From NCBI RefSeq assembly GCF_024125425.1, contig NZ_JAMXWN010000004.1, positions 176,956 through 240,955 of the forward strand: a stretch of 64,000 nt of DNA, given 5' to 3'. How positions within the stretch are numbered: position 1 is the stretch's first letter; each line of letters starts with the position of its first letter. The notes under the pieces were generated by a model. It made no database searches, had not been told where the DNA came from, and saw only the letters and a list, made by a program, of their open reading frames with translations. The DNA is from Sporolactobacillus kofuensis (GTDB taxonomy: Bacteria > Bacillota > Bacilli > Bacillales > Sporolactobacillaceae). Positions 8,542 through 61,000 of this stretch are shown here, one piece after another. The translations under genes were made by a program, and so were the position numbers.

Positions 8542-8655
8542 ATCCCAGTCGTGGATAAGCGGAATCCGGTCGTTCCAGTGGTTTATCCGGTCTTCGGAAA
8601 AATTAATCTGGGCATTTTCGAGCATAATTCGGTCGTTATCTCAATTTTTCCGATC
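8542..8655. repeat. degenerate intergenic array with 21-bp period
   Basis: Motifs of the type ATCCGG recur at about 8564, 8585, 8606 (ATCTGG), 8627 (ATTCGG) and 8648 (TTCCGA), every 21 bp. The words between them (GTCGTT, GTCTTCGG, AATTTTT) are shared but diverged. The array fills the gap between two terminators and shows no ORF. Confidence 0.6.
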
Positions 8656-8670
8656 CCTATCTAATGTTAT

Positions 8671-8712
8671 AAAAAAAGGGCGTCCCACAGTCCATAACTG
8701 ACTTTTGGGACA
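8671..8712 (-). terminator. terminator of the LPXTG protein gene
   Basis: On the minus strand GTCCCA-AA-AGTC pairs with GACT-GT-GGGAC, followed by GCCC and seven T. Confidence 0.8.
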
Positions 8713-8734
8713 CCTCCATTAATCCATTATTCTT

Positions 8735-11700
8735 TTAGGATCTTCTCTTTTTTCTCCTGTTGCGAACCGTCAAGAACAGCCCAGACAATACAAGGATCAT
8801 TCCAGCGATAATCGAATTTCTATCAAATTCGTCTCCCGTTTTCGGCAAGGAAGCCTTTGATTTTGTATCCTTGGAAGGACTTGCTGATCCTGTTTTCTTC
8901 TCCGCGGGCTGCGTTGTGCTGCTTCCATGATCTTTTCCCTTAGCTCCTTGATGTTGATCCGTAGTTCCAGATGTTTTGGCAAATAATTTATCTGCGTTTT
9001 TCACATACAGCATGGTAAAGGTAGAAAACTTCGTAACGTCAAACTGGATGCCGCGTACACCGGATTCATAGTTTACCAATTGACCACGGATAACTTCTCG
9101 CGTTCCATCGCTATGCTCGATAAAGATCACCAAATTATTGAGCATCTCATCCGTTAATTGGACATCCGTCGGAATTGGCAACGTCAATGTCACACGATGA
9201 TTCTGCATGTTGGTTTCAATTTGCATCGGTTGGCCCAGGACTTGCATAGATGATGAATCCCCGTTAAGTACCGCTCTAACAATGGATTGTTGGGTCGCTT
9301 GTTCAACGATTCGTTGTCGATCTGATTGGTTTCTCACTGGAACAAGAGAGAAATACAAATCCTGATTAAAATCAGCAAGCGAACGATGGGGCACAAGGAT
9401 ATGTGCATCATTCGTGATGATTTGCAGACCCGTTCTCGATTGGGATAGAGTGTCCACTGCTTGGTTCGGGACGGAAACATTCACTTTCGACACTGGATCT
9501 TTTCCATCAGGAATAACGATACTGATAACCTTATTATTGGTGTCGTTAAGATTTTTCACTGCTTCCAACGCATTTGCATTGGTTAACGAAACAGAATTCG
9601 TTACTGTACCATCGCTATTTTCAGATTGAGTGATCGGCGTTTTGGTAAGCGTATCTTTTATACTCTTCGATGTGACATCAGCATAGATAATCTTTGATGT
9701 AGATTTAGCAGCTTCAGCTCGTGTCACATGCAGTGTATAGGTTCTTTTTGTCACGCCATCAGCAGCTGTGACCACAATCTTGATTGTATTTTTTCCAACA
9801 GTGAGCGGAACGTTCGCATGATCACCTTCGACTGGTGATCCGTCTACTGTAACGTTTTGGCTTCCTTCACTTCTAGAAAAAGTAATCGTTAATTGCGCAA
9901 TCTTATTATCTACCATTGCCATATAATCCGATTGACCAACATTAAATACCGGTGACAAAGTAGCTGAATCTGGAAGTTTCAAAGCTGACAATGTGCTTTC
10001 TGCTGACAGCCATTTCGCATAGAATGTTGTATCTCCGGTAACCGGTGTATCGAAATCATACGGTCTATTAAACGCTGAATCACTATACCAACCAGCAAAC
10101 GTATAACCAGCTCGTATTGGCTCTGCGGGTTTGTTTGCTTTGTCCTCAAAATCAATGGTTTGATCCGAAACGCTACTTCCACCGTTCGAGTCATAAGTGA
10201 CCGTATAGCGGTTTTTATCCCACTTAGCATACAGTGTTGTGTTCCCTGTTACCGGCGAATGGAAATCATATGGTTCCGTTAGGTCCGAATCCTTGTACCA
10301 ACCAGCAAATGTATAGCCGGTTCGTGTTGGCTCTGCGGGCTGGCTTGCCTTGTCTTCAAAATCGATGGTTTGATTTGAAATGGCGCTCCCACCGTTCGAA
10401 TCAAAAGCAACTATATAATGGTTTTTGTTCCATTTCGCATAAAGTGTTGCGTGCCCGGTAACCGGTGTATCGAAATCATATGGGCTATTAAACTCTGTAT
10501 CACTATACCATCCAGCAAACGTATAACCCGTCCTTGTTGGGTCCGCAGGCTGGCTTGCCTGGTCCTCATAATCGATGTGTTGATCACCTATAGCACTTCC
10601 GCCGTTCGAATCAAACGTTACATCATAGCTATTTTTGTCCCACTTCGCATAAAGCTTTACGTTCCCAGTTACCGGTGTCGTGAAATCATATGGGCTATTA
10701 AACTCTGTATCACTATACCATCCAGCAAACGTATAACCAGTTCGTGTTGGGTCCGCAGGCTGGCTTGCCTGGTCCTCATAATCGATGTGTTGATCACCTA
10801 TAGCACTTCCGCCGTTCGAGTCATAAGTGACCGTATAGCTATTTTTGTCCCACTTCGCATAAAGCTTTACGTTCCCAGTTACCGGTGTCGTGAAATCATA
10901 TGGGCTATTTAACTCTGTATCACTATACCATCCGGCAAACGTATAACCAGTTCGTGTTGGGTCCGCAGGCTGGCTTGCCTTGTCCTCATAATCGATGTGT
11001 TGATCACCTATAGCACTTCCACCGTTCGAGTCATAAGTGAACGTATACTGGCTTTTATTCCATTTCGCATATAAGGTCACATTACCTGTGATTGAAAAAG
11101 TATCACCTGATTGATAGTCTGTTCCAGACCCGTCTGCTTTTGTATTCCATCCATTGAACGAATACCCCGTTTTTGTAAGGTTTAATGGATTAAGTATGGT
11201 AACAAGAGTTCCTGGGCTATAAGACTGATTATCAACAGGCGCCGCTCCACTGGTGTTCCCATTTTCATTATAAGTTACGGAATAGGTTGGATTTACGATC
11301 AATAGTGCAGGAATACTCGTAATTACTCCACCAGCATTTGTCACTTTTACATAATATTGCCCTGCATCAGACAATTGTGCATTACTAATTGTTAAAGAAG
11401 GTCCTGTCTGACCAATAATCGGAGCCCCATCTTTATACCATTGAAATGTATTTTCAAAGGATAGAGAAAATACTGAGAATGTAGCTGATTGGCCCCTATT
11501 AATCGTCTGATTCATCGGCTGTGAAATAATGGATGGCGGCATTACGCTCCATTTTGCATAAAGTGTTGTGTTTCCGGTAACTGGTGTATTGAAATCATAT
11601 AGATTTGTCAGGTTTGAATCACTATACCAGCCTGAAAATAAAAATCCCGTTTTGAAAGGAATTAGCGGATTTAATATTTTATCCTGATAGGCAATCATTT

Positions 11701-13480
11701 GTGGCGGAACAGTACTCCCTTCGTTCGAATCAAAAGTGATCGTATACAGGACTTTGTTCCATTGCGCATATAGTGTTGTATTTTCAGTAACAGGTGTATT
11801 GAAATCATACGGCTCTGTCAGACCCGAGTCCTTGTACCATCCAGCGAACGCATAGCCGGTTCGTGTCGGCGCTATGGGTTTGCTTACCCTGTTTTCATAA
11901 TCAACGGTTTGATTTGCAATTGAGCTTCCGCCATTCGAGTTATAAGTAACTGTATACTGGTTTTTGCTCCATTTCGCATATAGTGTTGTATTTTCGGTAA
12001 CTGGCGTGTTGAAATCATATGTGTTATTAAATTCTGAATCACTATACCACCCACCAAACGTATAGCCGGTCTGTGTTGGGTCAGTAGGTTTGCTTGCCTG
12101 ACCTTCATAATCGATGGTTTGAGCAGCAACGGCACTCCCACCGTTCGAGTTATAAGTGACCGTATACTGGTTTTTGTTCCATTGCGCATACAACGTCACA
12201 TTGCCTGTAACTGTCAAAGCAGACTCCGGCTGATAGGCGGTTCCGGTACCATCTGCTTTTGTATTCCAACCATTGAATGAAAAGCCGGTTTTTACTAAAT
12301 TGCCGCTGTTTCCCTTAACTGTTACTGAATCACCATTACTATAGTTTGTTGGATCAGTTGGAACCGTTCCCGTTCCACCATTCGGATCATAAGTGATTTG
12401 ATAAGCCTGATCTACTTGGTAGGAGAGTTTTGGATATTCCCCTGGATTCATTTTCCAGATTGAATTAAAATCCCAACCGGCATTCGTATATGTAGACTTT
12501 GTTTGCATTTCCACTGTTGATTTAGCTGCGTTATCAGTAGAGCTACTTAAACCGGCTGTTTCTTTATCATAAAAGCTGTTCGTAATCGTTACTCCACTGG
12601 AAGCACCTGTAATACCACCAACACTATTAGTACCGGAAATTGATCCACTTGCATAGGAATTACTGATCGTTACAGATCCAGGCATAAAAATCTGCGCTCG
12701 CCCAATCAGTCCACCAACCCCATTACTCCCTTGTACTGATCCACTTGCGTAACTGTTGTTGACCGAAATTGGATCTCCAAAAAAGTCAAAATCAGATGAT
12801 TGAAAATAGCCAACTAAACCACCGACACTGCCGGTACCTTGTACGTGTCCACTTGCAAAGCTCGTATTAATATTTCCATCATTCTCACCAACTAATCCGC
12901 CAACTTCCTGAGCTCCTATTACGTCAGCTGTTGAATAACTTCCATTAATCGTGCCCTCACTATATCCTACCAAACCGCCAACATAACTGGATCCATTTAT
13001 TTCCCCCGACACACTGCTGTTGCTAATTGTGTCTCCTCTATAAAAGCCAACCAATCCACCGACATTGATACGGCCGTTAACATTCACATTTTCCAATTTT
13101 ACGTTTTTCACAGTCCCATTCTCAAGATGTGCAAATAGCCCGACATCATCTAGATCAGGGCGATTGATTTTTAAATTACTTATCGTGTGTCCGTCACCGT
13201 CAAAGGTTCCAGATAATGCTTGTCCATTGTCAATGGTTCCTATTGGCTGCCAATTGTCATAGCTACTAAGGTCAATATCATTGCCCAATTTGTAACTAGC
13301 ACTTAGGTCATTCCTCACACTGTCAAGTTGCGCAGCTGTAGTGATTATATAAGGATCAGCAGATGTTCCCGATCCTTGCATAGGTATCATTCCGGCATAT
13401 GCAACGGTTGCTCCGAACGTTGATTGAATGAGATAAATAAACATTATGATGATCAATCCGACTGAGATACTTCGTTTCAA
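8735..13480 (-). CDS. LPXTG-anchored surface protein with GLUG and InlB B-repeats (adhesin)
   Basis: This 1581-residue secreted protein is anchored to peptidoglycan by sortase. Order: signal peptide (about 1-30, SVGLIIIMFIYLIQSTFG, ending VAYA), a GLUG-repeat beta-helix (about 50-330, repeated VGGLVG), four InlB B-repeats, an Ig-like domain (SDAGQYYVKV), six more InlB B-repeats of about 70 residues, a cadherin-like beta-sandwich (TYTLHVTRA), a further domain and LPKTGD at about 1545 with a hydrophobic segment and RNRRKKRRS tail. The start is TTG at 13480 behind AGGGGGA; the longer frame lacks a ribosome site. The architecture suggests adhesion or biofilm; no ligand can be named. The two-component genes upstream may control it. 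Confidence 0.9.
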   Translation of the reverse strand: MKRSISVGLIIIMFIYLIQSTFGATVAYAGMIPMQGSGTSADPYIITTAAQLDSVRNDLSASYKLGNDIDLSSYDNWQPIGTIDNGQALSGTFDGDGHTISNLKINRPDLDDVGLFAHLENGTVKNVKLENVNVNGRINVGGLVGFYRGDTISNSSVSGEINGSSYVGGLVGYSEGTINGSYSTADVIGAQEVGGLVGENDGNINTSFASGHVQGTGSVGGLVGYFQSSDFDFFGDPISVNNSYASGSVQGSNGVGGLIGRAQIFMPGSVTISNSYASGSISGTNSVGGITGASSGVTITNSFYDKETAGLSSSTDNAAKSTVEMQTKSTYTNAGWDFNSIWKMNPGEYPKLSYQVDQAYQITYDPNGGTGTVPTDPTNYSNGDSVTVKGNSGNLVKTGFSFNGWNTKADGTGTAYQPESALTVTGNVTLYAQWNKNQYTVTYNSNGGSAVAAQTIDYEGQASKPTDPTQTGYTFGGWYSDSEFNNTYDFNTPVTENTTLYAKWSKNQYTVTYNSNGGSSIANQTVDYENRVSKPIAPTRTGYAFAGWYKDSGLTEPYDFNTPVTENTTLYAQWNKVLYTITFDSNEGSTVPPQMIAYQDKILNPLIPFKTGFLFSGWYSDSNLTNLYDFNTPVTGNTTLYAKWSVMPPSIISQPMNQTINRGQSATFSVFSLSFENTFQWYKDGAPIIGQTGPSLTISNAQLSDAGQYYVKVTNAGGVITSIPALLIVNPTYSVTYNENGNTSGAAPVDNQSYSPGTLVTILNPLNLTKTGYSFNGWNTKADGSGTDYQSGDTFSITGNVTLYAKWNKSQYTFTYDSNGGSAIGDQHIDYEDKASQPADPTRTGYTFAGWYSDTELNSPYDFTTPVTGNVKLYAKWDKNSYTVTYDSNGGSAIGDQHIDYEDQASQPADPTRTGYTFAGWYSDTEFNSPYDFTTPVTGNVKLYAKWDKNSYDVTFDSNGGSAIGDQHIDYEDQASQPADPTRTGYTFAGWYSDTEFNSPYDFDTPVTGHATLYAKWNKNHYIVAFDSNGGSAISNQTIDFEDKASQPAEPTRTGYTFAGWYKDSDLTEPYDFHSPVTGNTTLYAKWDKNRYTVTYDSNGGSSVSDQTIDFEDKANKPAEPIRAGYTFAGWYSDSAFNRPYDFDTPVTGDTTFYAKWLSAESTLSALKLPDSATLSPVFNVGQSDYMAMVDNKIAQLTITFSRSEGSQNVTVDGSPVEGDHANVPLTVGKNTIKIVVTAADGVTKRTYTLHVTRAEAAKSTSKIIYADVTSKSIKDTLTKTPITQSENSDGTVTNSVSLTNANALEAVKNLNDTNNKVISIVIPDGKDPVSKVNVSVPNQAVDTLSQSRTGLQIITNDAHILVPHRSLADFNQDLYFSLVPVRNQSDRQRIVEQATQQSIVRAVLNGDSSSMQVLGQPMQIETNMQNHRVTLTLPIPTDVQLTDEMLNNLVIFIEHSDGTREVIRGQLVNYESGVRGIQFDVTKFSTFTMLYVKNADKLFAKTSGTTDQHQGAKGKDHGSSTTQPAEKKTGSASPSKDTKSKASLPKTGDEFDRNSIIAGMILVLSGLFLTVRNRRKKRRS
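10000..11100 (-). repeat. near-identical 210-bp tandem repeats coding InlB B-repeats 6-10
   Basis: Consecutive 210-bp units (70 residues each) share long stretches; units 6-8 are almost identical at the DNA level, while units 9 and 10 and the earlier units 1-4 (11530-12420) have diverged. This suggests recent unequal recombination and possible length variation. Confidence 0.85.
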
Positions 13481-13654
13481 TGAATCGTCCCCCTGTTGAA
13501 ATCGAGATTGCCTAGTGACACAGCAATGTTCTCGATCCCTGTGCATAAGACGAATTCCCCATTTTTTAACAGCGTACGACAAAGCACCTTAAAAAAACCT
13601 TAAAAATGACATCAAATAGACACATTTTGCCGCTTAAATACAATGTCTTAAGAG

Positions 13655-13692
13655 AAAAAGCCGTACCATGGGTTCTCTCCATGATACAGCTC
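13655..13692 (-). terminator. terminator downstream of the hybrid kinase gene
   Basis: On the minus strand GCTGTATCATGG pairs with CCATGGTACGGC (two mismatches) around AGAGAAC, followed by TTTTTC. Confidence 0.7.
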
Positions 13693-13704
13693 GTCCTTTA
13701 TTTT

Positions 13705-16700
13705 TTATTCAGCAGGAATCCGAAACGAAATACAAGTTCCTTTTTCCGGTTCGCTTTGCACATTCAATTCAGTTCCATATTCGTATTTGAGCCGGCTGCT
13801 GATATTCTTTAAACCGACACCACGCTCGGAATCTGTTCGTTTCTCCAGTTGGTCAAACCGTTCGCGCGGCATGCCCACACCGTTATCCTCAACTTTAATT
13901 ACGTAATCTTCTCCAGCAACAAAGGCGGATACTTTCACTCTCCCGCCTTCTTCACGCTTGCTGATTCCATGACGAATCGCATTTTCAACAAGTGGCTGAA
14001 TCAAGAGCGGGGGGAGTTTGATAGAATCCAATTGTTCATCAATCGCGTACTCAATGTGAATGCGGTCTTTAAATCTCGCTTTCTCAATTGCTACATAAGT
14101 GCGCACGAGATGCATTTCTTGACTGAATGGAACGCATTTTTGAATATTACTGAATTGAAAACTACCTCTCAAGTAATCGGCAAGATGCGTGATCAACTTT
14201 CGTGAAGCACCCATGTCGGTATAACTTAGCGCAGCAATGCTGTTTAAGGCATTAAAAAGAAAATGCGGTTTGATTTGCGATTGCAAAAAGGCGACTTCCA
14301 TATCGAGTGCTTTTCGAAACGAATGTTTCATATTGAGCAGACTACTGATCCTCGCCTTCAATTCAGATCGATCAAAGGGCTTGGTCAAAAAATCGTTCGC
14401 TCCCGCCTCGAGTGTCGCAACCTTGTCTCTTGGCTCAATAGCTGCCGTCACCATCAGCACAGGAAGTTCTGCCGGCATATATTTTTCTCGAATGTGCTGG
14501 CAAACATCGTATCCGGATAATTCAGGCATACGTATGTCTAATATCGCCAAGTCGATCACTCTGGTCTGTTCGATTTGTTCGAGTGCTTCACGCCCATTTT
14601 TCACAGCAATCACATCACAATCAAGCGGTTGAAGCGCATCAATCAATATTTTCAGATTGGCAAAGTTGTCGTCGGCGATCAGAACGGTAGACTTGCCTGA
14701 ACGATTAACGAATAGAGGTGTGGGAAAACGATAATCAGGTTCTTTCTCATTCGCCCATTCATAGTCGTTTCGAACCGCATCACTCTGAGCAATGGGAAGC
14801 GTGATGCGAAACGTTGTCCCTTTTCCTTTCTCAGAGGACACTCTAATTTCTCCATTTTGCAGTTCGACCAGCTGTTTAACAATCGAAAGACCAAGGCCGA
14901 CCCCTTTCTGTTCATCCGATGAATCGAGCGAGAGAAAGGGTTCGAATATGAGCGGCAATTCTTGAATATCAATCCCGTCACCTGTGTCATGAACAACCAG
15001 TTCAATGTGTTCTTCTTGAATTGTTGCGTCAACTTCTACACGTCCATTCATCGTATGCTTGATCGCATTATCTAAAAGATTGCTGATGATCTGCCCAAAA
15101 CGGACTTCATCTGCATAAACAGATGGAAGATGCTCTGGAACAAGGTTTAATAGCTGAATACCTCTTTCCTTTGCACGGTACTCATGTATGCGCACCAGAA
15201 CATCAACAGTTGTTTGTACATCGACAGGCTCCGGTTTCACCACCAGAATCCCCTGCTTCAGCTTTGAGAAATCGAGAATGTCATACACAAGCTGTGACAA
15301 ATCTCTGGAAATGTGCGTAATTAATCCAAGGCTCTTCTTCTGTTCGGTACTCAGCGGATGTTCTGAATCGTTCATCATTGATTTAGAAATATTCATGATG
15401 CCATGCAGAGGCGATTTGAATTCATGCGACGTCCGTACAAGAAACTCATCTTTTAACTGATCATTTTTAATCAGTCTCTCAGACAGATCGTTGATTTTCT
15501 GATAATCATTCGCAAATCTAAGCGACAACAGCAACGCAAGTATGAGCAAGAAGATCAGCGGATCAAACGAGGACAGCTTATAAATAGGAAAAGAAAAATA
15601 AACCGATGCACGTTGCGCCAGTACGTACGTGTCTATAGATACTGCAGCAACAACCAGGTACACGCTTCCAGATCTTCGATGAAACATGGCCAGTAAAAAG
15701 ACATAGGTCGCATACAAAAAGATGAACATTAAATAGACAGTGACGAGAGAAAAACAGAAATTGACGAGAACATGACCGATAAATCCAAGAACCGCCAAAG
15801 TGATCAGACTGCCCGCGCCAATACAGCACTTAATTAGCCATTTTGAACAAAAGGTCTGAAATTCCTTTTGTAAATAAAGAAGTAAGGTGATGCACATCCA
15901 AACAACAGACAAGATCTGAAGCCGATAGTAAAGCCAGAAAGGTGTTGATCCGAACAGATCATAGAAGATACGTTCTCCGCTTGTCGCCTTGCCTATAGAC
16001 ACAAAGATACAGGTCAATCCTAAAATTATTAGGGAGTGATCTTTTTTTCGCTTCATGAATAAACTGATGTAATAGATTCCGACAATCAGAAAAGAAACAA
16101 CAATAATCCAGTCATAAGCAAGCGCCTTATTGTACAACCCGGCAATTTGCCCCGCACGCCCAAAATAAACAGAACCATTGATACCACCACTGCCGATCAA
16201 GTCATGGTTTGCCACTTGAATCATGATTGTATTCCAACCGCGATGCAGCGTGAAGTAAGAGGCATAGGGTTTGTTTTTCGCCCAATACCCTTCATGCTCT
16301 GCCGGACGCCCGCTCTGTCCCACCGTGAGGCCATTCACAATCAACCGATTTGCCATTTGGATGGAAGACGTTTTCAGACCATATACACTTTTGATATCTG
16401 AAATTTTAATGTGCAAGACATAAGTGAATGCACCGAGCGCATGCATTTTTTGATAGGCATTGCCCGGAATCGATAGAGTATCCGGATCGTTATCTGCAGA
16501 CAATTGCTGGTAAGAAAGAAGTTTATTAGGATAGAAATCCCACTGCCCATTCAGCGGGACGGGACCTTCTTTTGCAAAGTTCCACTTGGTCAAATCGAGA
16601 TTGCCATTGACTGCCTGCGGGGTTGATCGCTCATTATAAGTAAATACGACAAAAAGCACACCTATCATTAGCGCCAGGATACATACCGTGATTGCCAGTG

Positions 16701-16719
16701 CTTCAATTCTTTTTTTCAT
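13705..16719 (-). CDS. hybrid sensor histidine kinase (7TMR-DISM, HisKA, REC, second kinase module)
   Basis: The 1004-residue protein has an N-terminal membrane anchor (about 8-28), an extracellular jelly-roll 7TMR-DISM-type domain (about 40-190), seven membrane segments (about 195-400), a HisKA domain with H-box SHEFKSPLHG, an ATPase domain (DNAIKHT, GDGIDIQ, GVGLGLSIV), a receiver domain (LIADDN, LAILDIRMPE) and a LytS-like module (QIKPHFLFNALNS, VENAIRHG, ENGVGM). It thus carries two histidine sites and one receiver. It overlaps the response-regulator gene by 4 bases (ATGA) and is co-transcribed with it. Signal unknown; the jelly-roll domain suggests a carbohydrate ligand. Confidence 0.9.
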   Translation of the reverse strand: MKKRIEALAITVCILALMIGVLFVVFTYNERSTPQAVNGNLDLTKWNFAKEGPVPLNGQWDFYPNKLLSYQQLSADNDPDTLSIPGNAYQKMHALGAFTYVLHIKISDIKSVYGLKTSSIQMANRLIVNGLTVGQSGRPAEHEGYWAKNKPYASYFTLHRGWNTIMIQVANHDLIGSGGINGSVYFGRAGQIAGLYNKALAYDWIIVVSFLIVGIYYISLFMKRKKDHSLIILGLTCIFVSIGKATSGERIFYDLFGSTPFWLYYRLQILSVVWMCITLLLYLQKEFQTFCSKWLIKCCIGAGSLITLAVLGFIGHVLVNFCFSLVTVYLMFIFLYATYVFLLAMFHRRSGSVYLVVAAVSIDTYVLAQRASVYFSFPIYKLSSFDPLIFLLILALLLSLRFANDYQKINDLSERLIKNDQLKDEFLVRTSHEFKSPLHGIMNISKSMMNDSEHPLSTEQKKSLGLITHISRDLSQLVYDILDFSKLKQGILVVKPEPVDVQTTVDVLVRIHEYRAKERGIQLLNLVPEHLPSVYADEVRFGQIISNLLDNAIKHTMNGRVEVDATIQEEHIELVVHDTGDGIDIQELPLIFEPFLSLDSSDEQKGVGLGLSIVKQLVELQNGEIRVSSEKGKGTTFRITLPIAQSDAVRNDYEWANEKEPDYRFPTPLFVNRSGKSTVLIADDNFANLKILIDALQPLDCDVIAVKNGREALEQIEQTRVIDLAILDIRMPELSGYDVCQHIREKYMPAELPVLMVTAAIEPRDKVATLEAGANDFLTKPFDRSELKARISSLLNMKHSFRKALDMEVAFLQSQIKPHFLFNALNSIAALSYTDMGASRKLITHLADYLRGSFQFSNIQKCVPFSQEMHLVRTYVAIEKARFKDRIHIEYAIDEQLDSIKLPPLLIQPLVENAIRHGISKREEGGRVKVSAFVAGEDYVIKVEDNGVGMPRERFDQLEKRTDSERGVGLKNISSRLKYEYGTELNVQSEPEKGTCISFRIPAE

Positions 16720-24876: not shown

Positions 24877-24879
24877 AAT

Positions 24880-50752: not shown

Positions 50753-50766
50753 CAACTCAGAGCAAG

Positions 50767-50805
50767 AAAAAGGAATCGGATAAAAAGATCCGATTCCTTT
50801 CTTTC
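50767..50805 (+). terminator. terminator after the small membrane protein
   Basis: AAAGGAATCGGAT-AAAAAG-ATCCGATTCCTTT is a perfect 13-bp stem followed by CTTTC. Confidence 0.85.
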
Positions 50806-50831
50806 AGCCTAAACTTGGATTTAATTCGGAA

Positions 50832-51046
50832 ATCGGAACTGAGCTCAATTTTTATCCGTGAAAAAGCCGGAACGATCCGTAAAAAGGTGCGCCTAATCCG
50901 GGAATGGATTTAAGCACATGCTTAACCCAGGTAAACTTGGAATTTTTCGCACATTGATCCTGCGTTCCGCGCATTAGCTTGAACTCTTCGCGCATTGATC
51001 CTGTTGCTCCGCGCATTGACGTGAACTTTCCGCGTATTAAATCCCT
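50832..51046. repeat. degenerate intergenic arrays with 21-bp period (two word families)
   Basis: First, ATCCG words recur at about 50854, 50875 and 50896. Second, CGCGCATT words recur at about 50948, 50968, 50989, 51010 and 51031. Steps are 21 bp, once 20. The text between alternates between GATCCTG and TTGAACT types. The array lies between two terminators and no ORF is likely. Confidence 0.7.
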
Positions 51047-51051
51047 AAACC

Positions 51052-51090
51052 ACAAAAAAGAAGCTTGCCAAATGGCAGGCTTCCTTTTTG
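51052..51090 (-). terminator. bidirectional terminator
   Basis: GAAGCTTGCC-AAAT-GGCAGGCTTC (one mismatch) is flanked by A6 and T5. It ends the lipoprotein operon on the minus strand. Confidence 0.8.
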
Positions 51091-51857: not shown

Positions 51858-51984
51858 TGACAGCACTCACGATCTATTGTTTCTTCGGAACAACAAATGA
51901 AAGTTCCATCTATGAAATATATCACAAGTTGGTCATCATCTTCTACTTTTTCGTTTGAGAATTCGGTCACATCCACCGGGATGG

Positions 51985-52416: not shown

Positions 52417-52628
52417 TGATGTTCTCCTTACAATGTGAATGTCTGAAACACTATTTAAGTACACCCTCCCATAAACAGTCAATCTAGTCAAATCCATGAG
52501 ACGCCACCCATGTTCTTTACCTTTGTTTTTTTTTGTTAAGCTCTTTTGCAACTACTTCTGCGGCTGTTTATTTCTTATGGGTGATGACATAATGCAAATG
52601 ATCTATTTACATGGTTACGAAGGCACAA

Positions 52629-52682
52629 AAAAAAGAGGTCTCACAAAGGTTTGAAACCATCATGAGAAACCTCTATTTTCCT
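52629..52682 (-). terminator. terminator of groESL
   Basis: On the minus strand AGAGGTTTCTCA pairs imperfectly with TGTGAGACCTCT across a 23-base loop, followed by eight T. Confidence 0.65.
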
Positions 52683-52719
52683 TGGACCCTTATTTGCACA
52701 TCATGGGTTCAGGTGTTTA

Positions 52720-54357
<1,638 letters not shown>

Positions 54358-54431
54358 CTAATATCAAATCTTAAAATGAGGATCTTATGCTCTATACAGT
54401 GATTCTTCGCCTAAGGTTGAATCACAACATG

Positions 54432-54716
54432 TTAATCAATAACAGCTAAAATGTCGTCCTGACGAACAACAAGATACGTCTTGCCGTCATATTTTACTTC
54501 AGTACCTGCATATTTTGAGAAGATTACTTTTTCTCCTTCTTTTACGTCCAAAGCGATGCGTTCGCCTTTGTCGGATACCTTGCCGGTACCAACGGCAACA
54601 ACGTGGCCTTCTTGTGGCTTTTCTTTTGCCGAGTCAGGAAGTACGATACCGCTTGCTGTTTTTTCTTCTTTTTCTTGTGGTTCGATCACAATACGATCGC
54701 CTAATGGCTTTAACAT
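54432..54716 (-). CDS. groES: co-chaperonin GroES
   Basis: The 94-residue lid of the chaperonin begins [20 protein letters not shown], with the mobile loop [14 protein letters not shown] near residue 20 and C-terminal [10 protein letters not shown]. Start ATG follows AAGGAGGG. It is first in the operon, with a CIRCE operator and a vegetative promoter immediately upstream, so HrcA repression is expected. Confidence 0.98.
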
Positions 54717-54757
54717 GTTGAAATACCCTCCTTAAAAGTGTTAAGTTAAGTACTTTG

Positions 54758-54784
54758 TTAGCACTCGGATCACCTGAGTGCTAA
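54758..54784. promoter_or_regulatory. CIRCE operator (HrcA site)
   Basis: TTAGCACTC-N9-GAGTGCTAA is a perfect match to the CIRCE consensus, 42 bases before groES. Confidence 0.97.
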
Positions 54785-54794
54785 TCCATCTAAT

Positions 54795-54823
54795 ATAATA
54801 ATCAATTCCAAAATGATTTGCAA
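54795..54823 (-). promoter_or_regulatory. groESL promoter
   Basis: TTGCAA (-35) and TATTAT (-10) with 17-base spacing lie on the minus strand directly before CIRCE, so the operator overlaps the transcription start. Confidence 0.75.
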
Positions 54824-54887
54824 GTTTTTCCTGAAAAATATCTACACGATTATCATCCCTAAGAGAAACTAAGCAAGAATCAACTGC

Positions 54888-54940
54888 CCGGTTCTTATTT
54901 TGTACAAATCTGCTTCGATCGTCTCGCTTCGCTGCTTTTT
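54888..54940. repeat. degenerate repeat shared with 63885-63960
   Basis: TTCTTATTTTG, a 6-base variable part, TCTGCTTCGATCG and CTCGCTTCGCTGC are shared in order with 63885-63960. Both sit next to gene starts. Confidence 0.5.
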
Positions 54941-55110
54941 ACACAAGAAACCTTATTCTTCTAAAAGAGACCGGAAGAGATAATCAAAATGAGCTATGGT
55001 AAAATAAAACCATGGTTCGTGTACATACTATTTACTTTCAAATGTACAACAATGCTTTCAGTTTAATACAAAGGTTACGAAACTATACAAATGAATCTGA
55101 GGTGTCGGAT

Positions 55111-55770
55111 TTGGTTCTAAGGTACATCAGTATCGTGCTTATCTATCTCATTTGTTTTATCTCACCGCTTATTCCTGGATTTCCACAGCAAGAGCCGGCC
55201 CACGGTAACGCCTACACAGTTGTGTTCTTTGCGACACTGATTATTGTGCTACTGCTCTTGATTCCGGAACGAAAATTGGAACGCGGTCCGGTTGCATCGG
55301 TCGGTGAATCCATTGCCTGGGCAATCTGTGGTGTTTTTCTGTTGTTTGTACTTCAGATCATTACTGCCTTAATCAACAGCATCATTCTTGGTCAACCGAT
55401 GAAATCAGAACATACTCAGGATGTTGTTGGCTTAGCTCGTAGCGCGCCTTTATTTATACTCACAGCGAGTATTATTGGGCCAATGCTTGAAGAGATTGTT
55501 TTTCGTAAAATTTTCTTCGGCAGCTTGAAAAAGAAAATCGGCTTTTTCTTTGCGGCATTGATTAGCTCGCTTGTATTCGCTGCTTTTCATTTTGATTTCA
55601 GTCATCTGCTCATCTATTTTGTTATTGGCTTTTTCCTCTGCTACGTCTATCACAAAACCGGCCGAATTGTTGTCAACATGTTCATGCATGCAGCGATGAA
55701 CGCGGTCGTTGTGCTCATAAGCATGAACGTGCAGATCCCGAGCACACCAGGATGGATTCATCTGTTCTGA
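55111..55770 (+). CDS. CPBP family intramembrane metalloprotease (YdiL-like)
   Basis: The 219-residue membrane protein carries the CPBP/Abi motifs: EEIVFRKIFFG (motif 1), FAAFHFDFSH (motif 2) and HAAMN (motif 3), with about six to eight helices. The family includes CAAX-type proteases and bacteriocin immunity proteins. TTG 55111 is preferred, 8 bases after GAGG; an ATG at 55012 would add 33 residues but lacks a signal. In B. subtilis the YdiL homologue lies directly upstream of groES; here it is divergent from groES, a local inversion. Confidence 0.85.
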   Translation: MVLRYISIVLIYLICFISPLIPGFPQQEPAHGNAYTVVFFATLIIVLLLLIPERKLERGPVASVGESIAWAICGVFLLFVLQIITALINSIILGQPMKSEHTQDVVGLARSAPLFILTASIIGPMLEEIVFRKIFFGSLKKKIGFFFAALISSLVFAAFHFDFSHLLIYFVIGFFLCYVYHKTGRIVVNMFMHAAMNAVVVLISMNVQIPSTPGWIHLF

Positions 55771-55865
55771 AAACCACAAGAGAAAATTGGATGATTCCAA
55801 ATAACCGCATTCAGGACCGAAATCGTCCCACATTTCAAATCAGATATGTTCCTAGAAAAAAGAAA

Positions 55866-55904
55866 AGGCGTCTCATAGGCAAAAGAGCTGTGAGACACCT
55901 TTTT
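55866..55904 (+). terminator. terminator after the CPBP gene
   Basis: GGCGTCTCATAG and CTGTGAGACACC pair over 12 bp with two mismatches, followed by TTTTT. Confidence 0.75.
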
Positions 55905-55970
55905 GGTGTGCGCTTTCCAGTGCGTTTCGCGTGGGTTTTTTCCCGTTTCGCGCGAACTTCTTTTTATTCT
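55904..55970. repeat. short array with 21-bp period
   Basis: TTTCGCGTG at 55925 and TTTCGCGCG at 55946 are 21 bp apart; a related GTGTGCGC lies about 21 bp earlier. It follows a terminator directly. Confidence 0.45.
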
Positions 55971-55981
55971 TCATTTACACT

Positions 55982-56719
55982 TTAATCCAACCAGTAATAG
56001 CCCCTGATCATCGAATCAATTTTCTCATAACCCGCCTTGTTATAAATATGAATAGCCGGTGGGACATTGGAATAAAGATAGCTTGTTGTTTCTAAATTTT
56101 TTCGATTGAAATCCGTTAAAAAATTGATTAGTTGGCTGGCATAGCCTTGGCCCCGTTTATTTTTCTTGGTAAAAACATCATTAATTCTGGAAATGTCACC
56201 CCGTCTGTATAGTGAAGCGAGACAAACAAGTTCCCCAGAAGCATAACCACCAAATAAGTAGAAATTCGGATGGGTTACTGGCTTAAATAAACTTTTATAG
56301 GCCCATTCACCTTGATCGGGATCCGACGCAAAGAGCGTGTCAATTGATGCGTCAATTGTGGCGATGCGAGAAAAGTGTAAGGTGACCGGCGTGTCGATGA
56401 TTTTGGCCGTTGTTTGCACGAAAAAGCTTTGCCCTTCAACACGATGGCGAAAACCGTTGTTTGCGAGATAACGCCCAACTTTGCTCTCCTGCATGGAAAA
56501 TGTATAGATACGTGGCGGCAGTCCTAACGATCGAAACACAGTGACAACATCCTGTACTGCGGGTCCAAATTCAGCATTTTCCTCAATATAAGCATGATTA
56601 CTGTCATAAGATAACGGATTCTCTGTATCATGAAAAATCCGACCATAAGGTTTTTCAATGACTTCTGACTGGACTTCCCCAAAATTGTTCTCAAAAGCAA
56701 TCAATTGATCTGTAATCAT
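55982..56719 (-). CDS. GNAT family N-acetyltransferase
   Basis: The 245-residue protein has an N-terminal extension (1-110) and a C-terminal GNAT domain with LVCLASLYRRGDISRI, acetyl-CoA motif KRGQGYASQLINFL near residue 198 and IHIYNKAGYEKIDS. The N-terminal half resembles a second, degenerate GNAT fold. Substrate unknown. Start ATG follows GGAGAACAAATCG. It is on the same strand as map but 124 bases downstream of it. Confidence 0.82.
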   Translation of the reverse strand: MITDQLIAFENNFGEVQSEVIEKPYGRIFHDTENPLSYDSNHAYIEENAEFGPAVQDVVTVFRSLGLPPRIYTFSMQESKVGRYLANNGFRHRVEGQSFFVQTTAKIIDTPVTLHFSRIATIDASIDTLFASDPDQGEWAYKSLFKPVTHPNFYLFGGYASGELVCLASLYRRGDISRINDVFTKKNKRGQGYASQLINFLTDFNRKNLETTSYLYSNVPPAIHIYNKAGYEKIDSMIRGYYWLD

Positions 56720-56843
56720 GTCGATTTGTTCTCCGTTCTATAAATCATTTCGTATTGGATAAAGTAAATCCCGAGCAAAAGATCCTTCTTATGCTCGGGG
56801 ATTATGATCATGATTAAAATGTACTTTCTCGGTCATTTGACGT

Positions 56844-57608
56844 TTAATGCGCGTCTGTTACATCAAGTGCAGTCAGTATTTCCGGACCGTCTTTTGTAAT
56901 CGCCAAGGTATGCTCATATTGCGCCGAAAGCGATCCATCAACCGTACGTGCTGTCCATCCGTTCGGATCAACCTTTGCACGCCAGTCTCCAATGTTCAGC
57001 ATCGGTTCAATGGTAATCGTCATGCCTTCTCTAAGACGAAGTCCGCGCCCCGGACGGCCATAATGAGCAACCGGCGGATCTTCATGCATCGTCGGTCCAA
57101 TACCATGACCAACAAATTCACGTACAACGCTCAGTCCACGGTCTTCAGCGTATTTCTGAATGGCATACCCGATGTCGCCCAGTCGATTTCCCACAACAGA
57201 CTGCTTGATTCCCTCATAGAGTGCTTCTTCCGTTGTTTTCAGTAAATGCTTGGCTTCATCGGAAATATCACCCACTGCATAGCTCCACGCTGAGTCTGAC
57301 ATCGCACCGTTTAAATTGACAACCATATCAATGGTGACGATGTCCCCGTTTTTCAGCGCTTTTTTGTTCGGAAAGCCATGGCAAATTTCATCATTTACAG
57401 AGGCACACGTTGCAAATTGATAGCCTTCAAAACCTTTTTCTTCCGGAATTGCCCCGTGCTTTTCCAGAAATTCATTCACAAATTCTTCGATCTCCCACGT
57501 CGTTACGCCGGGACGAATCATCGACTTGATATGCTGATGTGCCTGAGCAAGCAGTTGCCCGGATTTTTTCATCTCAGCAATTTCATTCTGTGATTTTAAT
57601 TGGATCAT
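56844..57608 (-). CDS. map: methionine aminopeptidase type I
   Basis: The 254-residue enzyme removes the N-terminal Met from new proteins. The metal ligands are visible: Asp in VTIDMVVN near residue 97, Asp in GAMSDSAW, His in GPTMHEDPP near 173, Glu in TIEPML near 204 and Glu in YEHTLAI near 236. HGFPN carries the substrate His. It lacks the N-terminal zinc finger of type Ib. Start ATG follows a weak GGTGG. In B. subtilis map lies with ribosomal genes; here it is a separate copy near rex. Confidence 0.93.
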   Translation of the reverse strand: MIQLKSQNEIAEMKKSGQLLAQAHQHIKSMIRPGVTTWEIEEFVNEFLEKHGAIPEEKGFEGYQFATCASVNDEICHGFPNKKALKNGDIVTIDMVVNLNGAMSDSAWSYAVGDISDEAKHLLKTTEEALYEGIKQSVVGNRLGDIGYAIQKYAEDRGLSVVREFVGHGIGPTMHEDPPVAHYGRPGRGLRLREGMTITIEPMLNIGDWRAKVDPNGWTARTVDGSLSAQYEHTLAITKDGPEILTALDVTDAH

Positions 57609-57761
57609 TCCTGCATTCCACCCTTATTGTAAAAAAACATTGATCACCATTATTTTATTTCTTGGCTTTGTTAAATTTGCCGTTGTTTGTTAATGTTTCT
57701 TGCCCTGTGTTCTTCCACGCACATATCAAAAGTAGCGCATCTGTATTTTACCACTTAATCC

Positions 57762-58403
57762 TTACGATTTCCTTTCTTCCATCGCGTGATTAAGAAAATA
57801 GATTAAAGCCTGAAGTTCAACCGTCATATCCACATGCCGCACATAAGCATCTTGCGGCAGGACCAACCGAGTAGGCGAAAAATTCAAGAACCCATGTATA
57901 CCGGAGGCAATGGCCAAATCAGCAGCCTTCTGTGCATGAGCAGCGGGCACAGTCAGTATCGCTGCTGTGATCTCGCGATTATCATCCGTCTCAAGTTCGT
58001 CCATGGAATGGACTGAGGTACCACTTATTTCCGTACCAATCTTTAACGGATCGACGTCATAAGCCTTTACAATTTTGGTATTGTTGTTCTTTTGAAAATT
58101 GTGGTTGAGCAGTGCCGTTCCCAAATGACCGACGCCAATAAGAATAACCTTAGATAACTCATCTTGATACAAGATCTTCTTTAAAAATTCCATTAAATGT
58201 TGTGTATCATAACCATAACCTTTTCTTCCCAATGCACCAAAATATGAAAAGTCCTTACGGATTGTTGTTGAATCAATTTGCACAATCCCACCAAATTCTG
58301 ATGAAGAGATGCGCGTTTTTCCTATCGCAACCAAGCGCTGCAACGTTCGGTAATAGAGCGGCAACCGCTCGGCTGTTGCTTGTGGTACATTCTGATTTGC
58401 CAT
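57762..58403 (-). CDS. rex: redox-sensing transcriptional repressor Rex
   Basis: The 213-residue repressor of fermentative and respiratory genes responds to the NADH/NAD ratio. The N-terminal winged helix (QATAERLPLYYRTLQRL, IDSTTIRKDFSYFG) binds DNA; the Rossmann part GVGHLGTALL near residue 88 binds NADH; the C-terminal helix completes the dimer. ATG 58403 is used because GGGGGA precedes it by 7 bases and it gives the family length. A near-consensus Rex site lies upstream at 58488-58505, so autoregulation is likely. Confidence 0.96.
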   Translation of the reverse strand: MANQNVPQATAERLPLYYRTLQRLVAIGKTRISSSEFGGIVQIDSTTIRKDFSYFGALGRKGYGYDTQHLMEFLKKILYQDELSKVILIGVGHLGTALLNHNFQKNNNTKIVKAYDVDPLKIGTEISGTSVHSMDELETDDNREITAAILTVPAAHAQKAADLAIASGIHGFLNFSPTRLVLPQDAYVRHVDMTVELQALIYFLNHAMEERKS

Positions 58404-58487
58404 GACCGGGTCCCCCATTTTCACCATGCTCATCTACGTCGTTCCACCCATGTCTCTTGTTCCACTATACTATAAACACAAGCATTT

Positions 58488-58505
58488 TTGTTAATTATTT
58501 CACAA
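58488..58505. promoter_or_regulatory. putative Rex operator between rex and ydiF
   Basis: TTGTTAATTATTTCACAA matches the Rex consensus TTGTGAA-N4-TTCACAA with one change. It overlaps a candidate -35 (TTAACA) of rex and stands 142 bases before ydiF. Confidence 0.65.
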
Positions 58506-58646
58506 TGTTAACTCTTTTCGTCTTTCTACTGAAGGTACAGTTGCCGAATAAATTAGGATTAAGCTAAAATGAAACTATATATATTTCCACAACAAGGCGC
58601 TATAGCCTTGCCGCCCTTTATTCCTAATTCTCTTGAGGTGAAGATC

Positions 58647-60599
58647 GTGTTGCTTTTACAAACCAACGAGATCAGCAAGTCCTTCGTCACTGATCTTGTT
58701 CTATCAAATATATCGATTGAAGTAAAGCTTGGTGAACGTGTCGCGCTTGTTGGACGCAATGGCGCCGGCAAATCAACGCTACTTAAAATTATTGCGGGTG
58801 AGCTGAGTGCCGACAGTGGGGAAGTCATCATGCCGAAGAACCGGACCATGGGCTATTTGCCTCAGAACGCAACCCTCGACTCGAAAAGAGGAATTTATGC
58901 AGAATTGCTCTCCGTCTTCAGCCCTTTGATTGCCCTAGAGAAGAAAATGCGCATGATGGAGGAGCAGATGGCTGATCCCGGCAGCTTCTCCAGTCCAAAA
59001 GACTATGACCAGCTCTTGAAAAATTATGATAACCTCCAAGCCGATTTCCGTGCGCAAGGCGGCTTTACCTATCAAGCCGAAACACGGAGCGTCCTGAACG
59101 GATTGAATTTCGGTGGATTCCCAGACGAAACCCCGGTCAGCAATTTATCGGGTGGTCAGAAGACGCAGCTTGCCCTTGGCAAACTGCTGCTCATTAAGCC
59201 TGATTTACTGATTCTTGACGAACCCACAAACCACTTGGACATTGATACACTATCCTGGCTTGAGGGTTATCTTCAACGCTATAGTGGAAGTGTGCTTGTT
59301 GTTTCCCATGACCGTTATTTTCTCGATAAAATTGCGACCAAGGTGTATGAGGTCGCTAGCCACAAAGTACGGAAATATACCGGTAATTACTCACGTTATC
59401 TTGAATTGCGTGCCGCTGAATACGAAAGTGAATTGAAGACCTATGACAAGCAGCAGAAAGAAATTACAAAACTGAAAGACTTTGTACAAAAAAATATTGT
59501 ACGGGCCTCAACAACGAAACGCGCACAAAGCAGAAGAAAACAATTAGAAAAAATGGATTTAGTGAATAAACCACTTGGCGATGAAAAATCAGCGACATTT
59601 TCGTTTACGATTGAACAACAAAGCGGTCGTGATGTCCTGTCTGTCGCAGATCTCTCGGTAGGCTATACGCATCAGTCACCAATGATTTCAGAACTTACTT
59701 TTCACATCAGTAGAGGCGACCGTGTCGCACTTGTTGGCCCAAATGGGATCGGAAAATCAACACTGTTGAAGGCCATTGCAGGCGGAACGACTCGACAAGA
59801 TGGCGAAGTGGTACTTGGCAGCCATGTCAGTCTTGGTTACTACGATCAGGAACAGAAAAGCCTGAATCCCGTAAATACGGTCCTAGATGAATTATGGAAC
59901 GATTATCCACTAAAGCCTGAGAATGATATACGCACGGTTCTTGGCGGTTTCCTGTTCTCCGGTGATGATGTCTCCAAAGTTGTTTCCCAGCTTAGCGGTG
60001 GCGAGAAAGCCCGACTCATGCTTGCGAAACTGATGATGCGTCATGATAATTTACTGATTCTCGATGAACCGACGAATCACTTGGACTTAGACAGTAAAGA
60101 AGTTCTCGAAGGTGCACTCATTGATTATCCGGGAACAATCTTATTTGTCTCCCATGATCGCTATTTTATTAACAATATCGCCAGTAGAGTATTTGAATTG
60201 ACGAGAGAAGGCATTACTGAATATCTTGGCGACTATGATTACTATATTGATAAAAAGACCGAGCAAGAGCAAATTGCCGAGCTCGAAGCACAGCCCGCGG
60301 CACCACAAAAACAAGAAAGTACGATCGGAGAAGGAAAAGATCAATTCTTAAAAGACAAAGAACAAAAAAAGAAAAAGCGCCAGCTTATTCGCTTCATTGA
60401 ACAATCTGAGGCAGACATTAGTACCCTTGAAGAAAAAATTGACAAGAACCAGCAATCTCTGCTTTTGCCGGATGTCTTTAATGACACAAAGAAAGCGAAA
60501 GAGGTTCAAGCTGAAATTGAGCATGATCAGTTGCAACTTAGTGAACTGATGGAGAAATGGGAATCTGCCCAAATGGAACTCGATGCCTTTGAAAATTAA
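58647..60599 (+). CDS. ABC-F family ATPase (YdiF-like)
   Basis: The 650-residue cytosolic ATPase has two ABC domains and no membrane part. Domain 1 has GRNGAGKST, LSGGQKTQLALG and LLILDEPTNHLD; domain 2 has GPNGIGKST, LSGGEKARLMLA and DEPTNHLDLDS. The linker between them (about 240-310) is charged and helical, and the C terminus is a coiled coil. ABC-F proteins act on the ribosome. Start GTG 58647 after GAGGTGA; the longer frame has no signal. Position between rex and tsaD matches ydiF of B. subtilis. Confidence 0.92.
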   Translation: MLLLQTNEISKSFVTDLVLSNISIEVKLGERVALVGRNGAGKSTLLKIIAGELSADSGEVIMPKNRTMGYLPQNATLDSKRGIYAELLSVFSPLIALEKKMRMMEEQMADPGSFSSPKDYDQLLKNYDNLQADFRAQGGFTYQAETRSVLNGLNFGGFPDETPVSNLSGGQKTQLALGKLLLIKPDLLILDEPTNHLDIDTLSWLEGYLQRYSGSVLVVSHDRYFLDKIATKVYEVASHKVRKYTGNYSRYLELRAAEYESELKTYDKQQKEITKLKDFVQKNIVRASTTKRAQSRRKQLEKMDLVNKPLGDEKSATFSFTIEQQSGRDVLSVADLSVGYTHQSPMISELTFHISRGDRVALVGPNGIGKSTLLKAIAGGTTRQDGEVVLGSHVSLGYYDQEQKSLNPVNTVLDELWNDYPLKPENDIRTVLGGFLFSGDDVSKVVSQLSGGEKARLMLAKLMMRHDNLLILDEPTNHLDLDSKEVLEGALIDYPGTILFVSHDRYFINNIASRVFELTREGITEYLGDYDYYIDKKTEQEQIAELEAQPAAPQKQESTIGEGKDQFLKDKEQKKKKRQLIRFIEQSEADISTLEEKIDKNQQSLLLPDVFNDTKKAKEVQAEIEHDQLQLSELMEKWESAQMELDAFEN

Positions 60600-60601
60600 C
60601 A

Positions 60602-60742
60602 TTGTCCACAGATTTAACCGTACTTATGCACCTATTCATTGAGTTATCCCCAATTTATCCAGTGGGAAAGAGCACTTATTCACATGATCTGTGGATATGT
60701 GCTCTTTTTATTATGGATAAACAGTTATCCACATGTGAATAC
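60602..60742. promoter_or_regulatory. DnaA-box cluster between ydiF and tsaD
   Basis: Nine-mers on or near TTATCCACA: TTGTCCACA at 60602, TTATCCCCA at 60644, TTATCCAGT at 60655, TTATTCACA at 60676, ATATCCACA on the minus strand at 60690-60698 and a perfect TTATCCACA at 60725. Six in 140 bases is far above chance. Confidence 0.8.
60669..60710 (+). terminator. terminator of ydiF with DnaA boxes in the stem
   Basis: AGAGCAC pairs with GTGCTCT; inside it TTATTCACA faces TGTGGATAT with few mismatches around TGATC, and TTTTTATT follows. Confidence 0.75.
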
Positions 60743-60880
60743 TTTTCAGCTTCTGCACAGTAGGCTCGAGCAAGAAATAAATACGAAACAGGAATCGCTT
60801 TTACTCGATGATTGGGGACCCTTAACGTTTATTATCTCTGTCTCGAATATTCCATGCATAAACCGCTCATCATTCCGCTA

Positions 60881-61000
60881 TTCACGCGAGTTCAGATGAG
60901 TTTCGTGCGAGTTCATCGTTTTTTGCACACTTTCAAATCGATTTCGCTTGGCATGACCAAAGGTTCGCGAATAACCCCCGCCACGCACAATCCACAAGTC
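60881..61000. repeat. degenerate intergenic array with 21-bp period
   Basis: TTCACGCGAGTTCA at 60881, TTCGTGCGAGTTCA at 60902, TTGCACAC at 60923, TTCGCTTGG at 60943 and TTCGCGAATAA at 60964 follow at 21-bp steps (one of 20). No ORF. Confidence 0.6.

What the first reader, a model, noticed from the sequence alone, without database searches (positions are those of the whole stretch)
8542..61000. Unrelated intergenic sequences share one 21-bp period
Seen directly: at least five intergenic stretches (1172-1297, 8542-8655, 50832-51046, 55904-55970, 60881-61000) are tandem word arrays stepping by 21 bp, yet their words differ (ATCGATC, ATCCGG, CGCGCATT, TTTCGCG, TTCACGCGAG). Several lie right after a terminator. 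No CRISPR spacers, no conserved stem and no ORF. A common period without common sequence suggests a shared copying mechanism (template slippage in two-helical-turn steps) or a structural role (phased bends, protein binding on one DNA face). I know no named family of this kind.
Basis: partly seen in the sequence, partly recalled or inferred. Interest (0 to 1): 0.85.

Follow-up and report, generated by a model that had tools for sequence, protein, structure and literature searches.

The report
Intergenic arrays with a 21-base ruler
Between genes of Sporolactobacillus and some other Bacillales lie rows of a short word repeated every 21 bases; related species can keep the row and its spacing at the same place while the word differs, so the rows likely serve as evenly spaced docking sites for a DNA-binding protein.

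Summary
Four arrays in the window step by 21 bp well above shuffled controls (1-73, 1171-1295, 8542-8655, 50844-51038); 55904-55970 and 60881-61000 are marginal. On the whole contig, 14 of 114 intergenic regions carry a lag-21 segment (shuffled mean 0.23, maximum 2); on a second contig only 2 of 139 do. The genome is a Sporolactobacillus. Each unit is a 10-12 bp word plus a more variable spacer. The words are not wholly unrelated: read along the upstream gene, most are a GC-rich core followed by AAA (GACCGATAAA, AATGCGCGAAAA, AATCCGGGAAAA). The new result is comparative. In the gatB-dagK and dagK-rlmD regions of 15 Sporolactobacillus genomes, 15 of 30 hold lag-21 segments, with at least seven words. 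The two arrays flanking the window's NERD-domain gene carry another word, at the same period, at the same places in a related species. Orthologous arrays differ by whole 21-bp units. The best reading, narrowly, is helically phased protein-docking arrays; the binder is unknown. A satellite evolving by slippage alone is almost as likely. No description was found in the held library.

The parts
1..73 (-). End of a six-unit F1 array (C34:176902-177028); words at 13, 34, 55 read ATCGATC/ATCAGTC on +, i.e. GATCGATAAA along the adjoining genes on -
   Evidence: TRF period 21, p 0.001, steps 21,21
66..1034 (-). NERD-domain gene lying between the two F1 arrays; the syntenic stretch in G012 has the same layout with another word
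   Evidence: Pfam NERD 3.4e-14; synteny, 81% identity in the block
1171..1295 (-). F1 array, six words, five steps of exactly 21 bp
8542..8655 (-). F2p array (ATCCGGTC/ATTCGGTC on +), steps 22,21,21,21, between convergent genes
   Evidence: p 0.002
50767..50800 (.). Terminator-like palindrome at one end of the composite element; its counterpart near C34:103.88 kb is 91% alike over 43 columns
50844..50904 (+). F2-like part (ATCCGTGAA, ATCCGTAAA, ATCCGGGAA, steps 21,21)
50946..51038 (-). F3 part (TTCGCACAT/TCCGCGCAT/TTCGCGCAT on +), five words, steps 20,21,21,21
   Evidence: TRF period 42/21
51054..51089 (.). Terminator-like palindrome closing the composite element
55925..55966 (-). Weak: two TTTCGCG words 21 bp apart
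   Evidence: p 0.014
60881..60985 (.). Weak: two word pairs, each 21 apart, 41 between pairs; not clearly an array
   Evidence: p 0.041

Best explanation
These are intergenic arrays in which a 10-12 base word recurs every 21 bases in one direction, and they likely work as rows of docking sites for a DNA-binding protein that would sit on one face of the DNA every two helical turns. Shown: the period, the single direction, the gain or loss of whole 21-bp units, the position of many arrays between a gene's end and the next gene's start, and different words at the same positions in related species. Inferred: neighbouring protomers touch, which would fix the 21-bp spacing; the constant AAA end of the word is read by a conserved part of the protein and the GC-rich core by a changeable part; different arrays in one genome are served by related proteins of different taste. 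Inferred function: a boundary behind gene ends that blocks stray RNA polymerase or replication-linked traffic. New units would arise by slippage or recombination between identical words, after which selection would keep word and spacing while the spacer drifts.
For: Exact spacing in searches that allowed 30 gap lengths: 53 of 97 and 127 of 141 matches at 21. Word versus spacer: an array found without a word pattern (L088:14214-14349, TACTGTTGATT, six units) has 0.84 identity in its best block and 0.34 outside, p 0.0025; in relative G010, 74 F1 units (67 distinct) show TTTATCGGTCGT at 1.2-2.0 bits and the spacer at 0-0.7 bits, but those loci were picked by a pattern holding this word and the four seed bases are 2.0 by construction. 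Same-strand to opposite-strand F1 word pairs under 200 bp: 168 to 5 in own loci (580 to 0 in relatives, loci picked by a same-strand pattern). Position and period kept, word different: 15 of 30 gatB-dagK and dagK-rlmD regions of 15 species have lag-21 segments, with words including GACCGATAAA, TGATCGATAA, CGCTCGATAAA, GGCCGGTAGA, CGGCTGGTAAA, GTCGCACC-AA and GTTAGGCCGAA; NERD-gene arrays are F1 in G000 and F2p in G012. Polarity: the TTT-first word lies on the negative-GC-skew strand in 44 of 55 arrays (binomial p 4e-6 if independent).
Against: No binding protein was identified. One genome carries many words, which a single protein would not explain. Only 11 of 36 arrays with five or more units show a conserved block of contiguous columns at p<0.05; 25 do not, and of the seven such arrays on C34, the contig not chosen by pattern, two do. 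In the own genome's pooled F1 units the spacer is also partly conserved (TTT at 1.1-1.8 bits). No lag-21 segment was found in 15 of the 30 regions compared, and none in 36 intergenic regions (about 96 kb) of G014, so arrays are dispensable. The dagK promoter-like motif stands without an array in several species. Polarity fails in G033 (0 of 3), may be strand composition, and the 55 arrays include orthologues and dispersed copies. In orthologous arrays A and C words changed too.
Confidence: 0.4

Rival explanations
1. A neutral minisatellite superfamily: the arrays descend from one ancestral 21-bp array, spread to many gaps between genes, and evolve by slippage and unequal exchange; the common period is common descent and the words drift.
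For: Graded words at one locus across species; 21-bp unit indels; higher-order repeats of n x 21 + 29 bp in relatives; a dispersed element of up to about 470-500 bp carrying 2-4 words in G013; a paralogous terminator-F2-F3 element in the own genome; regional clustering; dispensability; no word-spacer contrast at p<0.05 in 25 of 36 arrays.
Against: Predicts equal decay of word and spacer, against 11 of 36 arrays and the G010 logo (the latter with ascertainment); does not by itself explain why spacing stays at 21 rather than 20 or 22 while words differ, although G033 does mix 20 and 21.
Confidence: 0.38
2. Non-autonomous mobile or template-copied repeats in which array and flanking terminators are copied together from gap to gap.
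For: G013 copies share flanks beyond the array; window 50764-50937 and C34 near 103.88-104.1 kb share terminator and F2 pieces.
Against: Shared flanks were looked for only in G013 and in a few own loci; no transposase or target duplication was sought; one viral-contig stretch for the F1 triple, none for the F3 triple, and no plasmid match for one array.
Confidence: 0.1
3. RNA-level elements: transcribed word arrays bound by an RNA-binding protein.
For: The array at 1-73 lies between two co-directional genes, close to a ribosome-binding site, so it may be transcribed.
Against: 13 of 29 arrays lie behind a predicted terminator; no unusual fold in six arrays; no family at gathering score on arrays in six loci; a two-helical-turn period has no clear meaning for single-stranded RNA.
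Confidence: 0.08

Closest known systems
STAR elements of Staphylococcus (PMC3532100; abstract and passages seen)
   Same: Intergenic direct repeats of a short motif with spacers; loci expand and contract; function unknown
   Different: One 14-bp motif with at least 40 bp between motifs and, in the passages seen, no fixed helical step; at different loci in each staphylococcal species, whereas here position and period can recur across species and the motif differs
TAACTGA direct repeats of Beggiatoaceae (PMC4679880; abstract and passages seen)
   Same: Intergenic direct repeats of a short word, patchy taxonomy, possible binding sites
   Different: One heptamer, in the best-studied genome mostly just upstream of start codons; here 21-bp period, many words, often behind gene ends
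Bacterial minisatellites / VNTRs (recalled)
   Same: Tandem units gained and lost whole
   Different: No shared period across unrelated loci is expected; here 21 dominates
Plasmid iterons and ParR-parC type arrays; LytTR-type direct repeats (recalled)
   Same: Direct-repeat protein sites spaced by about two helical turns
   Different: Typically one locus or promoter and one word per protein; here many chromosomal arrays with several words and no known binder

Membership tests
STAR elements | 14-bp consensus T(G/A/T)TGTTG(G/T)GGCCC(C/A) with at least 40 bp between motifs | tested here: not met
   Words and 9-11 bp spacers differ; consensus from a passage
CRISPR array | Long near-identical repeats with unique spacers of about 30 bp (recalled) | tested here: not met
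   10-12 bp words, 9-11 bp spacers
CRISPR array | Neighbouring cas genes | not tested
   No cas search was run; repeat geometry already fails
Minisatellite / VNTR | Tandem copies of one unit, gained and lost whole | tested here: met
   One 21-bp unit in array A; one inside array B plus a 21-column gap at its gappy edge (G000 against G012)
Minisatellite / VNTR | Word and spacer decay alike (neutral) | tested here: inconclusive
   Contrast significant in 11 of 36 arrays, not in 25
Phased protein-site array (iteron-like) | Direct repeats in fixed helical phase, one orientation | tested here: met
Phased protein-site array (iteron-like) | A cognate protein binds the word | not testable with these tools
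   No binding assay; no candidate found
REP/BIME or other palindromic repeats | Stem-loop in the repeat | tested here: not met
   Fold z-scores -1.0 to 1.4 in six arrays
Phased A-tract curved DNA | A-tracts at 10-11 bp steps | tested here: inconclusive
   Pooled noncoding lags 9 and 12 exceed 10 and 11; curvature itself not computed
Rfam RNA families | Match to a curated family | tested here: not met
   Six loci, E up to 0.1: no match on an array; a sub-threshold rli40 match (28 bits, gathering 100) lies about 100 bp before the L095 array

The most novel reading that the evidence does not exclude
A class of chromosomal ruler arrays in which the 21-bp spacing and the sameness of words within an array are kept while the word itself is free to change: arrays coevolve with fast-changing readers, or recognise one another directly as matching duplexes in helical register, and so mark or fold the chromosome at gene ends.
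Probability: 0.2. Interest if true: 0.92.

Novelty: new variant of a known kind. Interest (0 to 1): 0.7.

Why it matters
Bacterial repeats are usually recognised by a shared sequence. Here spacing is shared and the sequence differs at fixed positions, so sequence-based repeat finders would miss the class. If a protein reads the arrays it would be an unrecognised family of chromosomal array binders with quickly changing specificity; if nothing does, the arrays are a clean case of bacterial satellite DNA with a built-in ruler. Either way the orthologous series at gatB-dagK-rlmD makes the question testable in a harmless genus.

Tried and rejected
CRISPR, palindromic repeats, Rfam RNAs and STAR membership were considered and set aside (see membership test). 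Coding heptads: 21 bp is seven codons, but G033 arrays mix 20- and 21-bp steps and the words GATCGATAAA and GACCGATAAA themselves hold TAA; mechanical ORFs do overlap some arrays. Horizontal carriage: one IMG/VR stretch matched the F1 triple, none the F3 triple; one array gave no plasmid match. A scan of the GTDB species collection for the exact triple TTTATCRGTCA gave 10 stretches: Sporolactobacillus (5), Gracilibacillus (2), Paenisporosarcina, a Bacillus and an unclassified Bacillota MAG. Literature: eight searches; no listed title described these arrays. One search searched six of the words as letters; 474 papers held at least one and only 40 were listed. Searches also listed only part of their hits (10 of 16, 15 of 882, 12 of 75). 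Most subscription papers are not in that library. Genes beside eight own-genome arrays show no obvious common function by eye. The terminator finder and gene calls are home-made, as no gene caller was at hand; C34 coding coverage was 73%.

Full report
WHAT IS THERE. The window is the last 64 kb of a 241-kb contig (C34) of a 2.96-Mb genome, G000. A genome of the same genus, G007, has a contig 48 of 15,054 bases with word matches at the same positions as NZ_BJMS01000048.1 of Sporolactobacillus inulinus NBRC 13595, so the source is a Sporolactobacillus. Tandem Repeats Finder reports period 21 at 10-69, 1171-1295 and 50966-51038. Word starts step by 21 with rare 20 or 22. Against 1000 shuffles per stretch, 1172-1297, 8542-8655 and 50832-51046 are clear (p 0.001-0.002), while 55904-55970 (p 0.014) and 60881-61000 (p 0.041) are marginal.

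IS IT MORE THAN CHANCE. On C34, 14 of 114 intergenic regions of at least 63 bp contain a lag-21 segment scoring >=13; 60 dinucleotide-shuffled sets give a mean of 0.23 and a maximum of 2; the 13 other lags tested from 15 to 28 give 0-3. A first count with simpler gene calls gave 14 of 137, with 42 and 63 as the next strong lags. On C23, 2 of 139 regions pass, no more than the shuffled maximum, although pooled lag-21 identity is raised (z 6.1). Arrays are therefore regional: F1 arrays number 12 in the own genome by my count, seven of them on C34. The stretches from C10, C17, C40 and C3 were fetched because they held matches and are not unbiased.

ANATOMY. Each unit has a conserved word and a variable spacer. 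F1 is TTTATCGATCA/TTTATCGGTC, F2p ATCCGGTCGTT, F2 AATCCGGGAAAA, F3 TTTTCGCGCATT; C40 adds GGGACAAAAA. Searches that allowed any of 30 gaps found 21 in 53 of 97 F1 pairs in the own genome (two of the 53 are isolated pairs) and in 127 of 141 F3 pairs in 26 genomes of the family, four of which had any, all in this genus (hand counts). The 14 other F3 spacings are 20 (6), 29-30 (7) and 41 (1). Same-strand to opposite-strand F1 word pairs under 200 bp are 168 to 5 in own loci. Word against spacer: of 75 detected segments, 36 had five or more units; median identity is 0.84 in the best 10-column block and 0.50 outside (a maximised contrast), and contiguity is significant in 11 of 36. On C34, which was not chosen by pattern, two of seven are significant. 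The clearest case found without a word pattern is L088:14214-14349 (TACTGTTGATT, 0.84 against 0.34, p 0.0025). Pooled G010 units give 1.2-2.0 bits at each base of TTTATCGGTCGT and 0-0.7 bits in the spacer (74 units), but those loci were located with that word; pooled own F1 units (62) keep part of the spacer too.

WHERE THEY SIT. Of 42 F1/F3 arrays in own and relative loci, 29 have a gene upstream on the strand where the word reads GC-core then AAA (binomial p 0.01), and 13 of those 29 have a predicted terminator within 300 bp between gene and array (hand counts). Four of 42 lie between divergent genes. At gatB-dagK the order is gatB, terminator, array, dagK promoter-like motif, dagK; terminator and promoter are my reading of the printed sequences, and the promoter-like motif persists in species without an array. 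The window composite lies between two terminator-like palindromes. The array at 1-73 is an exception: it lies between two co-directional genes, at the NERD gene's stop and about 30 bp before the ribosome-binding site of the next gene. The TTT-first word is on the negative-GC-skew strand in 44 of 55 arrays, but in 0 of 3 in G033; the 55 include orthologues and dispersed copies, and purine excess on leading strands could cause the bias.

THE COMPARATIVE RESULT. G012 is a related species, 73-94% identical in the blocks of C34 that align to its contig C16. Array A (119.3 kb) differs between the two by one whole 21-bp unit; array B (127.0 kb) by one inside and a 21-column gap at its edge, where the alignment is gappy; array C shows only small changes. 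At the window's NERD gene both species have an array on each side, F1 in G000 and F2p in G012 (plus a short F1 run on one side), all at period 21. Across 15 Sporolactobacillus genomes, GatB was found in 15 of 15. Of 30 regions (gatB-dagK and dagK-rlmD), 15 hold a lag-21 segment >=13: seven of 15 and eight of 15; four of these are weak at 13-15 (G011 and G002 gatB-dagK, G010 and G005 dagK-rlmD). Other lags from 15 to 28 reach 12 in six region-lag cases, one of them strong (lag 19 in G001, where units of two lengths alternate) and one (lag 20, G008) a likely 20-bp array. Words at dagK-rlmD run GACCGATAAA or close to it in six species, GGCCGGTAGA in G010, CGGCTGGTAAA in G009 and CGGCTGATAA in G008 (the last); at gatB-dagK they include TGATCGATAA, GACCGGA, CGCTCGATAAA, GTCGCACC-AA, GTTAGGCCGAA and TATCAACAAAA. 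So the words are graded relatives of a GC-rich core followed by AAA rather than unrelated, and place and period can outlast the word. In about 96 kb of G014, 0 of 36 regions have a lag-21 segment.

SPREAD AND ORIGIN. In a set of 78 genomes the F1 pair pattern occurs in 14 and the F3 pair in 5, with one reversed-control match in each search. The exact triple TTTATCRGTCA in the GTDB species collection gives 10 stretches, in Bacillales genera plus one unclassified Bacillota MAG (the order of the genera is recalled). In G013, two to four words ride in a dispersed element of up to about 470-500 bp, shorter in some copies; of 11 G013 loci printed, nine were aligned and two (L174, L175) were left out because their flanks differ. 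In the own genome the terminator-F2-F3 element occurs twice (window 50767-51089 and C34 about 103.88-104.2 kb; 91% over 43 columns in the terminator, 77% over 65 in the F2 part). Thus arrays are copied between gaps as well as inherited.

MECHANISM. Shown: fixed spacing, direction, unit turnover, positional persistence, differing words. Inferred: a protein binds the word, protomers two turns apart touch and hold the spacing, and the array insulates gene ends. The neutral satellite is nearly as likely; it explains dispersal, dispensability and graded words without a binder, but not the word-spacer contrast where that is seen. On checking I lowered the docking reading from 0.42 to 0.40 and raised the satellite from 0.36 to 0.38, because the G010 logo rests on loci found by its own word; the odds of the novel case went from 0.22 to 0.20 for the same reason. 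I could not name a binder; recalled analogies are plasmid iterons, ParR-parC and LytTR direct repeats.

NOVELTY. The nearest printed kinds found are STAR elements (PMC3532100) and TAACTGA repeats (PMC4679880), of both of which I saw abstract and passages; neither, as far as seen, has a fixed 21-bp step with changing words. Eight literature searches found no description of these arrays, within a library that lacks most subscription papers and with partly listed hits.

Noticed in passing
window 60644-60733: Behind the ABC-F-like gene (58569-60599; my reading of its Pfam domains) lies a cluster of DnaA-box-like 9-mers (TTATTCACA 60676, TTATCCACA 60725, TTATCCCCA 60644 and TTATCCA on both strands), which may titrate DnaA or mark a replication-control site.
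   Followed up: partly
window 8735-13582: 1615-aa LPXTG-anchored protein with Listeria-Bacteroides (Flg_new) repeats; 210-bp tandem DNA period at 75-83% matches.
   Followed up: no
window 66-1034: The NERD-domain gene is bracketed by arrays on both sides in two species, and within each species both arrays share a word; bracketing could allow cassette-like loss or exchange.
   Followed up: partly
C34:120066-133314 (outside window): 13-kb block 94% identical to G012 amid neighbouring blocks of 76-91%: recent exchange between the species or strong constraint.
   Followed up: no
L095, L098, L099 and G011:C34:200186-201073: Higher-order repeats of n x 21 + 29 bp (50, 71, 92, 113 bp) in F3 arrays, like higher-order satellite units.
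   Followed up: partly
L092, L093, L094 (G033, another family of the order): F1-like arrays there mix 20- and 21-bp steps and lie in the opposite polarity to GC skew.
   Followed up: no
L116 157-1368 (G000:C40): About 1.2 kb of GGGACAAAAA arrays in blocks of roughly 124 bp, the longest array among the own-genome stretches fetched.
   Followed up: no
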